Positions 2,698 to 18,207 of a DNA stretch of 64,000 bases are shown here, one piece after another. How positions within the stretch are numbered: the stretch's first letter is position 1; each line of letters starts with the position of its first letter. The notes under the pieces are model-generated. The model was given only the letters and a program-made list of their open reading frames with translations, made no database searches and was not told where the DNA came from. Source of the stretch: Exiguobacterium sp. J17977 (GTDB taxonomy: Bacteria > Bacillota > Bacilli > Exiguobacteriales > Exiguobacteriaceae); NCBI RefSeq assembly GCF_018616375.1, contig NZ_JAEQBB010000002.1, positions 434,001-498,000 on the forward strand, in the 5' to 3' direction. A program made the translations under genes and the position numbers.

Positions 2698-4386
2698 GTG
2701 GCATATGATGGATTAATGACATATCGTGTTGTAACAGAATTACAAGCGCTCGTCGGTGGGCGCATCAATCGCGTGCACCAACCGTATTCGCTCGATTTGA
2801 TGATTCAAGTCCGCTCGAACCGCCAAAGCGTCCAATTGCTCGTTTCGGCGAATGCGATGTACGCGCGGCTCCAACTGACTGATAACCCGACCAAGAACCC
2901 GCAAGAACCGCCAATGTTTTGTATGATGCTCCGCAAACACATCGAAGGTGGCTTCATCACGGCAATCGAACAAGTCGGACGTGACCGTGTCATCGTCCTG
3001 TCAATCCGTTCACGAAACGAGCTCGGCGACGAAGAGAATAAGAAAGTGTATATCGAACTGATGGGGCGCCACTCGAACGTCGTCTTGACGAACGAGGATG
3101 GCAAGATTTTAGACGCCATCAAACATCTCCCGCCGTCACAGAACACGTACCGGACGATCATGCCGGGCAGCGAGTACTTATTGCCACCGGCCCAAGACAA
3201 GTGTGATCCGTTGACGGAGCGTGAAGCCGGCTTGAAACGAATCGACTGGAACGCCGGCTCGCTCGACAAGCAGCTCGTGGCCAGTTTCGCTGGGCTGAGC
3301 CCGCAAATCGCCCAAGAGATTGTCCACCGGGCCAAACTCCCGAACCGGGCCAGCATCGAGGAGTCGTTCGTCAGCGTGATGAGCGACCTCGAAGGCCCTT
3401 ACGTCTTCCAACAGCTCGCGTCGGGCAAAGAGCGCTTCAGCCCGCTTGTGCTCACGTCCGGTGAGATCGCCTCTGAAGAGCGCTATGAGACGAGCAAAGA
3501 CGTGCTCGACCGTTTCTTCTATGAGAAAGCGAACCGCGACCGCGTCAAACAACAAGCCCACGATGTCGAGCGTCTGCTCAAGTCCGAGCTTGAGAAAAAC
3601 CTGTTGAAGCGCAAGCGACTGCTTGACGATTTGAAGGCGACGGAACGGTCCGACGAGCTTCAAAAATACGGGGAGCTGTTGACGACGTACTTGTTCCAGC
3701 TCGAGAAAGGCATGAGCGTCGCCCACGTCGTCGATTATTACGACGAGGAAGGCGGCATGATCGACATCCCGCTCAACAAGCTCAAAACACCGAACGAGAA
3801 CGCACAAGCGTACTACAAGAAATACAACAAGTTGAAAGTCGCCAAAGTCGAAGTGCAGAAACAAATCGAATTGAACGACGCCGAGATTGAGTATTTAGAG
3901 ACTCTCGTCGCCCAGCTCGACGTCGCCTCACCGGCCGATATCGTCGAGATTCGAGAAGAGTTGGCCGAAGGCGGCTACATGAAACAACGGAATCAAAAGA
4001 AGAAACAGACGAAGAAAATTTCGCTCGAAGCGTATACATCGTCAACGGGGACAGAGTTCTTCGTCGGGAAGAACAATACGCAAAACGATCATTTGACGTT
4101 CAAGTTCGCCCGTCGCGACGAGATTTGGCTCCATGTGAAAGATATACCCGGATCCCACGTCATCATCCGTTCGAGCGAACCCGATGAGACGACGTTGCTC
4201 GAGGCGGCGACCGTCGCCGCTTATTTCTCGAAGGCCCGTGCCTCGAGCGGCGTGCCGGTCGACTACACGAAAGCACGCTATGTGAAAAAACCGAGCGGTG
4301 CCAAGCCTGGATTCGTCATCTATACGGATCAACAGACGGTTTACGTCACGCCGGATGAGCGGCTTGTCAAATCACTCCAGCAATAA
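2698..4386 (+). CDS. rqcH: Rqc2/RqcH-type NFACT protein of ribosome-associated quality control
   Basis: RqcH binds the obstructed 50S subunit carrying peptidyl-tRNA, recruits tRNA-Ala and adds C-terminal alanine tails that mark nascent chains for degradation. The protein has an NFACT-N domain beginning MAYDGLMTY, an Asp-Arg pair at residues 96-97 (VGRDRV) matching the catalytically important DR pair of bacterial homologues, a central coiled coil rich in K/E/L (about 275-400) and a C-terminal NFACT-R domain (FKFARRDEIWLHVKDIPGSH). I chose the GTG at 2698 because AAAGGTG stands 9 nt upstream and homologues begin M-x-F/Y-DG; earlier in-frame starts GTG 2686 and ATG 2689 overlap that ribosome site. 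The product is 562 residues. A terminator follows 8 nt downstream. Older names are YloA and FbpA. Confidence 0.94.
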   Translation: MAYDGLMTYRVVTELQALVGGRINRVHQPYSLDLMIQVRSNRQSVQLLVSANAMYARLQLTDNPTKNPQEPPMFCMMLRKHIEGGFITAIEQVGRDRVIVLSIRSRNELGDEENKKVYIELMGRHSNVVLTNEDGKILDAIKHLPPSQNTYRTIMPGSEYLLPPAQDKCDPLTEREAGLKRIDWNAGSLDKQLVASFAGLSPQIAQEIVHRAKLPNRASIEESFVSVMSDLEGPYVFQQLASGKERFSPLVLTSGEIASEERYETSKDVLDRFFYEKANRDRVKQQAHDVERLLKSELEKNLLKRKRLLDDLKATERSDELQKYGELLTTYLFQLEKGMSVAHVVDYYDEEGGMIDIPLNKLKTPNENAQAYYKKYNKLKVAKVEVQKQIELNDAEIEYLETLVAQLDVASPADIVEIREELAEGGYMKQRNQKKKQTKKISLEAYTSSTGTEFFVGKNNTQNDHLTFKFARRDEIWLHVKDIPGSHVIIRSSEPDETTLLEAATVAAYFSKARASSGVPVDYTKARYVKKPSGAKPGFVIYTDQQTVYVTPDERLVKSLQQ

Positions 4387-4393
4387 GTTCAGG

Positions 4394-4418
4394 CCACGTC
4401 ACATGACGTGGTCTTTTT
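4394..4418 (+). terminator. Intrinsic terminator of rqcH
   Basis: CCACGTCA and TGACGTGG form an 8-bp stem with a 2-base apex (4-base effective loop), followed by TCTTTTTTT. It lies 8 nt past the rqcH stop. Confidence 0.9.
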
Positions 4419-4446
4419 TTGTTAGTCCATGGTAACTCGTCCTCTC

Positions 4447-4545
4447 GGCGCCCACGCTTTCCGCAGGCAACCCCGGAGCCGCATCGCGACTCAATGTCGC
4501 TGCTGGGTCTCCGTTGGGTTGCTTTCCTGCAGGAGTCGGGGCGCC
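4447..4545 (+). repeat. 99-nt imperfect palindromic element, copy A
   Basis: Bounded by GGCGCC at 4447-4452 and 4540-4545. Inside, further pairings are nested: GGCAACCC (4476-4483 region) with GGGTTGC (4516-4522), GGAG with CTCC, and an apical GCGAC-tcaat-GTCGC hairpin (4486-4500). Unpaired purine/pyrimidine blocks TTTCCGCAGG and CTGCAGGAGTC flank the stems. No coding potential is visible. The layout resembles GC-rich intergenic repeats seen in Bacillales genomes (TTTCCGC..., GGGTCTC..., GCAGGAGTC blocks); that resemblance is from memory and unverified. Copy B lies 50 nt downstream in the opposite orientation. Confidence 0.7.
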
Positions 4546-4595
4546 GACGGACGGTGCACGTCTGATTGACAGCCGAGCAGACACATGCCAAGGGC

Positions 4596-4694
4596 GGCAC
4601 CCGAACTCCTAGGGGACAGCGATGCAAGGATGACCCCGTAAAGTGCGGCACGCACTGCGGAGGCAGCCGCATCGCCCCAGGAACGGAGGGTGCC
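4596..4694 (-). repeat. 99-nt imperfect palindromic element, copy B (inverted relative to A)
   Basis: Bounded by GGCACCC (4596-4602) and GGGTGCC (4688-4694), exactly the same length as copy A. Read on the minus strand it shows the same succession of blocks as A: a CGTTCC/TTTCC-like block, an inner stem GCGATGC with GCATCGC, an apical AGTGCG-tgc-CGCACT hairpin, a CGGGGTC block and a final AGGAGT block before the closing stem. Base changes between A and B largely keep the stems paired. Together A and B form an inverted pair in a 386-nt gap without genes; the stretch between them (4546-4595) shows nothing recognisable. Confidence 0.65.
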
Positions 4695-4743
4695 GGCTAA
4701 AGCATGTGTAAATATGACATTTCCACTTATACTGGCAACAAGT

Positions 4744-4768
4744 AAAGGCCCCGTCGCTAAACGGGGCC
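4744..4768 (-). terminator. Intrinsic terminator of the ArAE-like permease gene
   Basis: GGCCCCGT and ACGGGGCC pair around a 6-nt loop; on the minus strand the stem is followed by TTTACTTGTT. It lies 5 nt past the stop of the permease gene. Confidence 0.8.
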
Positions 4769-4773
4769 TTGCT

Positions 4774-5709
4774 TCATTTCGGATTATGTTTGAACGCTTC
4801 GAGCTGTTCATGATAGTCGAGCAAGTGCCCGTGTAAGATTTCAGAAACGGATAAATCCTCATGCGGCAACGTGAACAGCGCATGCGGCTTGTCACACGTA
4901 TAAAGGATATCGTGGTGATGCGCGAGCAGGTATAAAAACTCGGACTCGAACGCCCGGCGCTCTTCCTCGTCCATGACCAACAGCGCCTCCCGGTGTTCAG
5001 CGAGACTCTCGAGCAACAAGACGAGCTTGTCCTCAAGGTGAATCAACAACCGGTACTGCTTCATCGTCAAATGCTTCAATTTCACGTTCGTCACTTTCAT
5101 ATCCTCTTGCAGCATCATGTGCAGCTCCTGATGGCCGAGGATGCGGGCCCGTGTCTCGAGAAGCTCGGACGGCGAACCAACGAGCTCGCGCCAGTGCTGG
5201 AACATGTACGCCGATGTCTTCCGAATCTCACTGAGCAACCGCTCCTCGTAACGAGGCGGCATGAACGCATAGTTGACACCGAGCGAGACAAAGACACCGA
5301 CGGCCGTCAACAGTGAACGGGTCCAAGCATAGTGGAAGAAGTCGGTCGTCGGGTTCTCGAGCATGAGCACGATTGCGAACGCCGCATACGTCGACATGTG
5401 CGTCTTATCGAACGTCGTATTGAGCGTGAGCGCGACGATGACGGCGAGCCCGATTGAAATCGGGTTGACCCCGAACGCATAGACAATCAGGAGACCGCAC
5501 ATGAGCCCGACCATCGTTCCGAAGATGCGACTGAAGACGATTTTTGATGACCGTTTCACGGTCGGTTGCATCGCGACGACGGCCGCGATGGCCCCCATGC
5601 CTGAATAGATGCCGAACACGTACCAGGACAAGGCAATCGTGATGGCAACGGCGATGCCGGTCTTCAAAGTTCGAAGTCCGACTTTTGGGATGTAACGTTT
5701 GTTCATCAT
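4774..5709 (-). CDS. Aromatic acid exporter family (ArAE/FUSC-like) membrane protein
   Basis: 311 residues. The N-terminal half (about 15-150) holds some five to six predicted membrane segments, including ITIALSWYVFGIYSGMGAIA and VGLMCGLLIVYAFG, with the MQPTVKRSS loop typical of the ArAE_1 (DUF939) group; the C-terminal half is soluble, helical and charged, ending in a His/Glu-rich tail. Members of this fold export aromatic carboxylates or are of unknown substrate; no substrate can be read here. The start ATGATG overlaps the stop of the upstream DUF4097-like gene by 4 bases (or abuts it if the second ATG is used), so the two are co-translated. A terminator follows. Confidence 0.8.
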   Translation of the reverse strand: MMNKRYIPKVGLRTLKTGIAVAITIALSWYVFGIYSGMGAIAAVVAMQPTVKRSSKIVFSRIFGTMVGLMCGLLIVYAFGVNPISIGLAVIVALTLNTTFDKTHMSTYAAFAIVLMLENPTTDFFHYAWTRSLLTAVGVFVSLGVNYAFMPPRYEERLLSEIRKTSAYMFQHWRELVGSPSELLETRARILGHQELHMMLQEDMKVTNVKLKHLTMKQYRLLIHLEDKLVLLLESLAEHREALLVMDEEERRAFESEFLYLLAHHHDILYTCDKPHALFTLPHEDLSVSEILHGHLLDYHEQLEAFKHNPK

Positions 5710-16046: not shown

Positions 16047-16086
16047 GAGAAAAGGCGCCTCTTCACCTACGTGAAGGGACGCCTTT
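16047..16086 (-). terminator. Intrinsic terminator of the pyrB attenuator
   Basis: AAAGGCG.C.CTTCAC and GTGAAG.G.CGCCTTT form a long stem (16051-16086) followed on the minus strand by TTTTCTCTTT. A GTGAAGG sequence nearer the PyrR site (about 16116-16125) can pair with CCTTCAC of this stem, giving an antiterminator. It stands between the PyrR-binding loop and pyrB. Confidence 0.85.
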
Positions 16087-16127
16087 ATCTGGGCAGAACA
16101 CACCCAAATAAACGAGCCTTCACTTTG

Positions 16128-16144
16128 CCGACCTCACGGGATCG
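16128..16144 (-). promoter_or_regulatory. PyrR-binding loop of the pyrP-pyrB leader
   Basis: On the minus strand CGATC-CCGTGA-GGTCG fits the Bacillus PyrR consensus (ARUC-CNGNGA-GGYU): a stem closing a CNGNGA hexaloop. It begins three bases after the pyrP stop. With UMP or UTP bound, PyrR would hold this hairpin, block the antiterminator and let the downstream terminator form. Confidence 0.85.
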
Positions 16145-16146
16145 AA

Positions 16147-17448
16147 TTAAAAGTTACTTGCTTGTCGTGTGTCTTCAGTTGTTTCGGCAGCAGGTTCTTC
16201 CACGCTCTCCGCTTTTGGCAAGAAGGCGTTCAAGAGAATCCCGACGACCGTTGCGAGCGCCATCCCTTGGACCGGGAAGCTACCGAGTTGGACCATCGCC
16301 CCACCGAGTCCGATGACGAGGATGACCGAGGCAATGATGAGGTTACGTTTCTCGGCAAGGTCGACGTTGCTCTCGACCATCGTCCGGAGACCGTTCGAGG
16401 CGATGACCCCGAACAAGAGGATTGAGATGCCGCCCTTGACCGGGTTCGGGATTGTCGAGATGAACGCTTCGACGTGTCCGAGGAATCCGAAGCTGATGGC
16501 CATGAGTGCAGCTCCGGCGATTACGTAGACGCTATATACTTTCGTGATGGCCATGACCCCGTTGTTCTCACCGTATGTCGTACATGGTGGACCACCGAGC
16601 GCCGAGGCGACCGCTTTCCCGACCCCGTCACCGAGGAGTGTCCGATGGAGACCTGGGTCTTTCATCGTCTCACGTCCGATGATTTTCGACGTGACCATCT
16701 GGTCGCCGATATGTTCCGTCATCGTGACAAGGGCGACCGGGACGATGGCGAGCAATGCCCCGACCTGCCACATTGGCATGTAGTCGACGAACACCATCGT
16801 AAAGTCAGGCAGTTGGAACAAGCTCGCTTGACCGATTGCCGAGTAGTCGATGATGCCGAACAGCGCGGCGATAAGGTAGCCGCCGATGATGCCGAACAAG
16901 ATCGGCACGGCGCCCCAGACACCTTTGAGCGTCGTCATGGCGAGAATCGTGATACCGAGCGTGAGAAGCGCGATCGTGATGAACGTGCCGTTGTAAGCCC
17001 CATCCTTATTCATCGACATGTCGATGGCGACCGGCGCGAGCGATAAACCGATGACCATGATGACCGGACCGACGACGACCGGCGGCAACAAACGCAGCAA
17101 CCAGTTCACGCCTGTCTTATAGATGATGAGCGAGACGACACCGTAGACGGCACCGGCGATGATGCCTCCGAACAAGGCGGCTTCGACACCCCACTGTTGA
17201 CTGACGGCGATAATCGGCGCGATGTACGCGAAGCTCGATCCGAGATACGTTGGGACTTTGAATCGTGTGATGGCTAGGAATGAGAGCGTGGCCACACCGG
17301 AAGCGACGAGGGCGACGGACGTGTTCAACCCCGTCAAAATCGGGACTAAAATCGTCGCTCCGAACATGGCGAAGACGTGTTGCAGGCTGAAGAGCAGCCA
17401 TTGCGGTAAGTGAGCGGGACGCTCGTGGATGTTGAGGATGGGTTTCAT
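16147..17448 (-). CDS. pyrP: Uracil permease (NCS2 / UraA family)
   Basis: Uracil-proton symporter in the cytoplasmic membrane with about 14 hydrophobic segments. It begins MKPILNIHERPAHLPQWLLF and contains LQHVFAMFGATILVP and the GGPPCTTYGENNGVMA motif found in UraA-type carriers, where substrate-binding glutamates lie. The start ATG at 17448 has GGAG 8 nt upstream; a longer frame opens at 17481 but includes the ribosome site. 433 residues. The RBS sits directly beside a PyrR-binding hairpin without a terminator (see the separate entry). Confidence 0.95.
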   Translation of the reverse strand: MKPILNIHERPAHLPQWLLFSLQHVFAMFGATILVPILTGLNTSVALVASGVATLSFLAITRFKVPTYLGSSFAYIAPIIAVSQQWGVEAALFGGIIAGAVYGVVSLIIYKTGVNWLLRLLPPVVVGPVIMVIGLSLAPVAIDMSMNKDGAYNGTFITIALLTLGITILAMTTLKGVWGAVPILFGIIGGYLIAALFGIIDYSAIGQASLFQLPDFTMVFVDYMPMWQVGALLAIVPVALVTMTEHIGDQMVTSKIIGRETMKDPGLHRTLLGDGVGKAVASALGGPPCTTYGENNGVMAITKVYSVYVIAGAALMAISFGFLGHVEAFISTIPNPVKGGISILLFGVIASNGLRTMVESNVDLAEKRNLIIASVILVIGLGGAMVQLGSFPVQGMALATVVGILLNAFLPKAESVEEPAAETTEDTRQASNF

Positions 17449-17498: not shown

Positions 17499-18192
<694 letters not shown>

Positions 18193-18207
18193 TGTTATGC
18201 TTCCTAG

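What the first reader, a model, noticed from the sequence alone, without database searches (positions are those of the whole stretch)
4447..4694. Two 99-nt structured elements facing each other in a gene-free gap
Seen: copies A (4447-4545) and B (4596-4694) are each exactly 99 nt, each closes on itself with GC-rich ends (GGCGCC; GGCACCC/GGGTGCC), and B on the opposite strand has the same order of blocks as A. Stems differ in sequence but stay paired, which looks like compensatory change. They sit between the rqcH terminator and the terminator of the convergent permease gene. From memory, similar GC-rich repeats occur between genes in other Bacillales. Inference: a non-autonomous mobile element or a structured RNA with selection for shape. 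The inverted pairing could also make a larger cruciform.
Basis: partly seen in the sequence, partly recalled or inferred. Interest (0 to 1): 0.75.

Follow-up and report, generated by a model that had tools for sequence, protein, structure and literature searches.

The report
Decayed two-headed transposon in a terminator
The two facing hairpins are most likely the remains of a small jumping DNA element, built from left ends of bacterial IS1182 transposons, that landed in the terminator shared by two genes and left a copy of that terminator on each side.

Summary
In detail: two 99-nt hairpins, A (4447-4545, +) and B (4596-4694, -), related to each other and facing across 50 nt. They do not look like an RNA gene. 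A-type hairpins lie between the left end and the transposase gene of three IS1182-family insertion sequences in this genus. Intact relatives sit in intrinsic terminators and duplicate the whole hairpin: 20 of 23 distinct elements scored (18-33 bp), and 5 of 5 copies at this genome's assembly gaps (18-32 bp). The window copy is a decayed derivative with two facing heads. Five of 19 genomes of the genus lack it and have one terminator between the genes, so the two terminators here (17/24 identical) are best read as a diverged duplication. The hairpin family occurs in 98 of 398 genomes of the class. Its pairing covaries strongly; outside three conserved U·G columns, G·U is avoided as much as A·C, unlike tRNAs, which points to DNA-level pairing. 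Whole-stem-loop duplication was drawn as a hypothetical route in the IS1272 paper PMC5678879. Verdict: real, largely explained, a new variant of a known kind.

The parts
4391..4420 (+). Intrinsic terminator of the NFACT/RqcH-type gene (stem 4391-4414 plus T run); left copy of the presumed duplicated target
   Evidence: scan; 17/24 identical to the terminator at 4745-4770, 27 of 6216 random terminator pairs as similar; 5 of 19 genomes have a single terminator and no element
4421..4446 (+). Decayed left-end remnant: the inner part (..AACTCGTCC..) still matches the left end of intact relatives, the outermost 27 bp with the terminal repeat do not
   Evidence: match of the 559-bp relative to the window covers query 28-146; sequences
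4447..4545 (+). Hairpin A: IS1182 group I-type left-end (subterminal) hairpin, 99 nt
4546..4595 (.). Spacer between the two facing hairpins; 63 nt in three genomes with the same arrangement
4596..4694 (-). Hairpin B: second, diverged head of the element, 99 nt, facing A
4695..4744 (.). Decayed right-end remnant; GCATGTGT at 4702-4709 can pair with ACACATGC at 4581-4588, lengthening the B stem
4745..4770 (-). Terminator of the convergent ArAE_1/FUSC-type exporter gene (4774-5709, -); right copy of the presumed duplicated target

Best explanation
The pair is the decayed body of a non-autonomous transposable element derived from IS1182-family insertion sequences. Shown: in this genus three different IS1182 groups carry an A-type hairpin between their left terminal repeat and the transposase gene; intact copies, and a 559-bp derivative made of a group I left end facing a group II left end, sit in intrinsic terminators and mostly have the entire terminator hairpin (18-33 bp) on both sides. 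Inferred: the transposase recognises the palindromic terminator as a folded or foldable target, joins the two element ends at the two 5' feet of the stem, and gap repair duplicates the whole stem-loop, so the neighbouring gene or genes keep a terminator and the insertion is nearly harmless. At this locus a two-headed element (hairpins A and B facing) entered the single bidirectional terminator between two convergent genes; the terminal repeats have since decayed and the two terminator copies diverged. Inferred and less certain: the left-end hairpin works as DNA (cruciform or single-strand hairpin), as a cis-acting site for transposition, which would explain why small derivatives keep two hairpin-bearing ends.
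For: A-type hairpin between left terminal repeat and IS1182 transposase gene in groups I, II and III; NF033551 490 bits for group II and 337 for group III, cut-off 270, and 183 + 247 bits for the two halves of group I. Whole-terminator duplications in 20 of 23 distinct elements and 5 of 5 in the own genome, exact over 18-32 bp. The 559-bp derivative has a group I left end at one end and an inverted group II left end at the other. 5 of 19 orthologous sites are empty with one terminator. B hairpins: 21 of 30 loci have an A-type hairpin facing within about 200 bp (two of them fused with B), none in another orientation (many of these loci are orthologous, so not independent). Facing pairs 12 of 18 close neighbours in 80 named loci, almost all from other genera (binomial p 2e-4 against 1/4). 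A transposase fragment begins 85-138 bp downstream on the same strand in 4 of those 80 loci. Hairpins between convergent ORFs 27 of 72, against 29 of 236 other gaps. DNA-type covariation.
Against: The window copy has no intact terminal repeat and its two terminators are only 17/24 identical. No autonomous element with a B hairpin was seen in the 30 B loci. The own genome shows no IS1182 transposase in its 27 contigs, though the gaps explain it. Outside the genus no target duplication was detectable: 0 of 11 pairs and 3 of 73 solo hairpins above the null 99%, the three not terminator-like. Exceptions inside the genus: L061, L112, L116 and L117. Only 4 of 80 hairpins outside the genus have a transposase fragment beside them. 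The forms at the orthologous sites conflict with the gene tree, so the history of this locus is not one clean insertion. Another IS1182 member, ISCaa15, is tabulated with 4-bp direct repeats (PMC3196728, passages), so long duplications are not a rule of the family.
Confidence: 0.86

Rival explanations
1. The hairpins are a structured RNA or transcript-end device (insulator, backup terminator) of the two convergent genes, kept by selection on the RNA.
For: Strong covariation, 25 of 36 pairs with changes on both sides, 619 cells against 200 in shuffles. Two U·G columns are conserved in 104 and 102 of 106 sequences and a third in 83; with them the G·U ratio is 0.67 against 0.29 for A·C. A 0-2 and B 2-5 differences in 99 nt between the window and three genomes whose rqcH 4-fold sites differ by 8-26%. 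Each hairpin is in sense orientation to the gene before it here.
Against: No Rfam family above gathering score except two PyrR leaders elsewhere in the window and nothing convincing below it. In the variable columns G·U and A·C are equally depleted while tRNAs tolerate G·U only. No clear orientation preference elsewhere, 40 vs 32. Low divergence holds for the spacer too in three of the four genomes (0-2 of 63), so it mostly reflects allele exchange or youth; only the own-genome lineage shows faster spacer change.
Confidence: 0.09
2. A REPIN/REP element mobilised by a RAYT (Y1 tyrosine) transposase.
For: Two inverted palindromic heads with a short spacer, many copies.
Against: Heads are 99 nt, not the 20-40 bp given for REPs (PMC3733652, abstract start in the listing); Y1_Tnp genes occur in 9 of 19 genomes and in neither the own genome nor G016, which has 19 hairpins; intact copies have DDE IS1182 transposases and long target duplications.
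Confidence: 0.02
3. The covariation arises without selection, by template-switch repair that keeps making imperfect palindromes perfect; the hairpins are inert relics.
For: Symmetric depletion of G·U and A·C in the variable columns is what a DNA copying process would give; most copies outside the genus have no transposase beside them.
Against: Two U·G columns are nearly invariant and a third common (104, 102 and 83 of 106), which such repair would erase; the hairpin is kept in three diverged IS groups.
Confidence: 0.25
4. The two terminators flanking the pair are unrelated and each gene always had its own; no insertion into a shared terminator took place here.
For: Identity is only 17 of 24.
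Against: 27 of 6216 pairs among 112 de-duplicated terminators are as similar. Ten orthologous sites with element sequence were read: nine show a left terminator G(G/A)CCACGTC.. and ten a right one GGC(C/T)C(C/T)GTC.., while the empty site in G006 has one terminator GGCCACGTCATGCGACGTGGCC for both genes.
Confidence: 0.1

Closest known systems
IS1272 / TnSha1 of staphylococci (IS1182 family; PMC4923244 and PMC5678879, passages read)
   Same: IS1182-family element; targets are hairpins, often terminators, without a sequence consensus; insertions in both orientations at one target.
   Different: IS1272 is reported to delete or replace the target stem-loop and to leave no target duplication; here the whole stem-loop is duplicated. 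PMC5678879 draws such duplication only as a possible 'pathway b'. Here there is also a ~99-nt left-end hairpin and, in group I, a transposase in two frames.
IS1182 family at large
   Same: NF033551 transposase, terminal inverted repeats, palindromic targets (stated for some members by Siguier et al., as cited in the two papers above).
   Different: Group I has a conserved A_AAA_AAG slip site between two reading frames; long palindromic duplications, while ISCaa15 is tabulated with 4-bp repeats (PMC3196728, passages). From memory, ISfinder lists variable and sometimes long direct repeats for IS1182, so part of this may be known to specialists.
Bhal-1 stem-loop family of Bacillus halodurans (PMC2267715, passages read)
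   Same: Multi-copy (36 copies), 74 bp, folding, type I in their table, in a Bacillales species.
   Different: Its sequence is not in the passages I saw, so identity is untested; the words 'IS1182' and 'transpos' have no occurrence in that main text.
REPINs (PMC3116915, search listing only)
   Same: Two facing palindromes forming one mobile non-autonomous unit (recalled).
   Different: Different transposase class, size and target behaviour (recalled for REPINs).

Membership tests
IS1182-family insertion sequence (the autonomous relatives) | Transposase matching the IS1182 model | tested here: met
   NF033551 490 bits (group II) and 337 bits (group III), cut-off 270; group I halves 183 and 247 bits, each below the full-length cut-off because the gene is split
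IS1182-family insertion sequence (the autonomous relatives) | Terminal inverted repeats | tested here: met
   CAGACTGTAGACAAA.. / ..TTTGTCTACAATCTG and CAGCTTGTTGAC.. / ..GTCAACAGCCTG
IS1182-family insertion sequence (the autonomous relatives) | Palindromic (hairpin) target | tested here: met
   terminator hairpins flank 20 of 23 elements as near-perfect duplicates
Miniature derivative (MITE) of IS1182: window copy | Short, no transposase gene | tested here: met
   324 bp between terminators; the two minus-strand ORFs across it (101 and 181 aa) match no Pfam or NCBIfam family at E<=0.001
Miniature derivative (MITE) of IS1182: window copy | Terminal inverted repeats of the IS | tested here: not met
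   outermost 27 bp of the relative's left end do not match the window; met in the 559-bp relatives. The window copy is therefore filed as a decayed relic, not as a MITE in good standing
Miniature derivative (MITE) of IS1182: window copy | Target site duplication | tested here: inconclusive
   flanking terminators 17/24 identical, 0.43% of random terminator pairs as high
IS1272-type stem-loop replacement | Target stem-loop removed, no duplication | tested here: not met
   whole stem-loop present on both sides in 20 of 23 and 5 of 5
REPIN / RAYT | Y1 (RAYT) transposase in the genome | tested here: not met
   0 matches to PF01797 in the own genome and in G016
Structured non-coding RNA | RNA-type pairing (G·U tolerated, A·C not) | tested here: not met
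   observed/expected 0.30 and 0.29 outside three conserved U·G columns, 0.67 and 0.29 with them; tRNA control 0.58 and 0.00
Structured non-coding RNA | Expression as an RNA | not testable with these tools
   no RNA-seq held

The most novel reading that the evidence does not exclude
These IS1182 transposases read DNA shape twice: they choose folded palindromes (terminators) as targets and duplicate them whole, and they also need a folded ~99-nt hairpin at their own left end. Because the hairpin-bearing end is the indispensable one, chimeric elements made of two left ends, even of two different insertion sequences, become mobile and have seeded the GC-rich hairpins found between genes across the Bacilli.
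Probability: 0.28. Interest if true: 0.8.

Novelty: new variant of a known kind. Interest (0 to 1): 0.6.

Why it matters
It gives an origin for a GC-rich hairpin family found in 98 of 398 sampled genomes of the class, 63 of 360 outside the own order, and without a match in Rfam. It supplies natural cases of a target outcome, duplication of an entire terminator, that the IS1272 paper drew as a possibility, and thus an element that can enter gene ends without removing termination. It makes shape-directed DDE transposition directly testable in laboratory bacteria.

Tried and rejected
IS200/RAYT link: Y1_Tnp in 9 of 19 genomes with no evident relation to hairpin number; dropped. Rfam: two PyrR leaders only; sub-threshold hits in 4380-4780 judged chance. 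Simple inversion of one element at the rqcH site: the A-B and B-A arrangements (hybrids and one remnant assigned by orientation) are interspersed on the rqcH tree, at least 5 changes, but the spacers do not align (31 of 62 differ) and A differs at 12 of 97 sites, so re-insertion or exchange of alleles fits better than flipping in place. Strong hairpin conservation (A 0-2 of 99 against 8-26% at rqcH 4-fold sites) first looked like selection on A; the all-pairs comparison weakened it, because in three genomes the spacer is as conserved. Target duplications around hairpins outside the genus: not found. Group IV IS1182 elements with ends GAGGCTGGGACATAAC have no A hairpin to the eye and no duplication of 13 bp or more in the 7 loci examined. 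A first terminator-similarity test had only 6 terminators and was replaced. The tRNA control failed on the session's own loci and was done after fetching phage T5: of the 25 tRNAs 23 are T5's, 2 from other loci; ARAGORN itself favours paired stems, so that control is generous to the RNA pattern. Leaving out the three U·G columns was decided.

Rows left out: three pairs of rows are the same element (26 rows, 23 elements); L056 and L060, and L061 and L112, may each be one old insertion in two species; L058, with a changed left end, and L117, with two different terminators, were not in that script, nor was the single group III element L139, whose duplication I read by eye. Of 116 loci only 80 were analysed. 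In one search genes were ORFs of at least 90 aa by a simple rule; 72 of 106 hairpins could be placed between two ORFs, 4 lay inside a long ORF, 30 could not be placed. In one search, 4 of 6 group I elements were parsed. One search scored at most 10 candidates per genome; listings were cut short.

Full report
What is there. A and B fold far better than shuffles, align to each other, and are the only strong matches of a covariance model in the window (both were in its seed).

Where else. In the own genome A has nine matches at E<=1 and B three. A further A-B pair lies on contig 12 in the same facing arrangement. Five matches to A are contig ends that stop 32-36 nt into the hairpin and share an outer flank beginning TCAGCTTGTTGAC next to a terminator-like hairpin. 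In the genus 18 of 19 genomes match A (E<=0.01) and 13 of 19 match B (E<=0.001). The model of A, B and related hairpins matches 18 of 19 genomes of the genus and 37 of 38 held of the order (E<=0.001), and 98 of 398 sampled genomes of the class in 32 of 145 genera (E<=1e-4); outside the own order it is 63 of 360. That the class is Bacilli is inferred from these names.

What carries it. Aligning ten copies from G016 and G002 showed a unit of about 560-590 bp with imperfect terminal repeats, an A hairpin at the left, an inverted A-like hairpin at the right, and in most copies the same terminator hairpin on both sides. Searching with it led to full insertion sequences. Group I (about 1.76 kb): left end, A hairpin, transposase in two frames. 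Group II (about 1.70 kb): left end, A-like hairpin, one 467-aa transposase. Group III: the same order with other ends, read in one locus. The proteins match NF033551, the IS1182 transposase, and Pfam DDE domains. Group I's frames meet at GGAAAAAAGC in the phase of a -1 slip site in 4 of 4 parsed elements (of 6), giving 487-537 aa if fused. The 559-bp unit is a group I left end, with a stretch of its transposase gene, joined to an inverted group II left end: a chimera with two left ends. B has an A-type hairpin facing it in 21 of 30 loci (two fused with B; many loci orthologous), stands alone in 9, and in none of the 30 is it the left-end hairpin of a transposase gene (the transposase in L153 belongs to a neighbouring group II element).

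Target. Of 23 distinct elements scored, 20 are flanked by near-perfect duplicates of 18-33 bp that contain a whole palindromic terminator; L061, L112 and L116 are not, nor is L117, which was not in that script. For the own genome, a query of the five terminators at contig ends found a partner at another contig end for 5 of 5; all five partners carry the group I right end ..GTTCGTCAACAGCCTGA, and the duplications are exact over 32, 32, 24, 23 and 18 bp. So the own genome very likely holds five recent group I copies in its assembly gaps, which explains why no IS1182 transposase is seen in its contigs.

The rqcH site. In 19 genomes, own included, by my reading of the sequences: no element and one terminator in 5 (G002, G003, G006, G012, G016); A-B as in the window in 4; B-A in 2, and B with an A remnant in G005; fused A/B hairpins in 3; a B remnant in G018; an A remnant in G001; group I remnants in 2 (G010, G013). 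The window's two terminators are 17/24 identical; 27 of 6216 random pairs are as similar. I read them as a diverged duplication. The forms do not follow the rqcH tree and the A-B and B-A forms are different alleles, so the site has been hit or exchanged repeatedly.

DNA or RNA. On 106 matches from 80 loci of mostly other genera, 25 of 36 pairs show changes on both sides, 619 cells against 200 in shuffles and 90-142 in slid structures (the alignment is fitted to the model, and the shuffles ignore relatedness). Excluding three conserved U·G columns (104, 102 and 83 of 106), G·U cells are 77 against 260.6 expected and A·C 65 against 222.2; with those columns G·U is 366 against 549.9. In 25 tRNAs, 23 of them from phage T5, G·U is 31 against 53.2 and A·C 0 against 34.8. 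RNA-level selection would spare G·U; the variable columns do not. Pairing is therefore probably kept, or made, at the DNA level, while the three U·G columns are conserved for a reason this test cannot tell. Hairpins lie between convergent ORFs in 27 of 72 cases, against 29 of 236 other gaps, with no clear bias in sense to the upstream ORF, 40 to 32. In the 80 loci 12 of 18 close neighbours face each other, and a transposase fragment starts 85-138 bp downstream on the same strand in 4; a fifth locus has an unrelated fragment 7 kb away.

How it most likely works. Shown: linkage of the hairpin to IS1182 left ends, insertion in terminators, whole-hairpin duplication, a two-left-end derivative with several copies. 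Inferred: strand transfer at the two 5' feet of the stem, then gap repair, which is the 'pathway b' drawn as a possibility in the IS1272 paper (PMC5678879, passages); that paper and PMC4923244 (passages) report deletion or replacement of the stem-loop and no duplication for IS1272. Inferred with less confidence: a cis-acting DNA role of the hairpin, and that the window's B head is also an IS1182 left end.

Novelty. My ten paper searches showed no paper, in the listings and passages I saw, that describes this hairpin family as an IS1182 end or whole-terminator duplication in nature; the library lacks most subscription papers and ISfinder, so this is weak evidence of novelty. PMC2267715 lists a 74-bp family Bhal-1 in B. 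halodurans that may be the same (passages). I rate it a new variant of a known kind.

Noticed in passing
own genome, contig ends C12/C2, C22/C26, C1/C21, C21/C2, C1/C24: Five assembly gaps are bounded by matching terminator duplications and the two ends of one insertion sequence, so the contigs can be ordered across them.
   Followed up: yes
L094, L097, L098, L099 (group I insertion sequences): A shared A_AAA_AAG slip site joins two frames of an IS1182 transposase, suggesting programmed -1 frameshifting.
   Followed up: partly
L118, L119, L120, L129, L130, L137, L138: A fourth IS1182 group with ends GAGGCTGGGACATAAC/GTTATGTCCCAGCCTC, without the A hairpin and without a long target duplication; it may use the stem-loop-replacing mode of IS1272.
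   Followed up: partly
L084, L077, L085 (orthologous rqcH gaps): Fused hairpins made of parts of A and B, apparently by deletion at a short sequence shared by both.
   Followed up: no
L116 and L117: Group II copies with different terminators at their two ends, as expected after recombination between copies; L117 also lacks its left hairpin.
   Followed up: no
window 16048-16158 and 18061-18196, - strand: Two PyrR-binding leaders (RF00515) just above the gathering score; ordinary.
   Followed up: no
L240: The hairpin in a record labelled Arthrobacter beigongshangensis, the only non-Firmicutes name among the 80 listed; contamination or transfer not tested.
   Followed up: no
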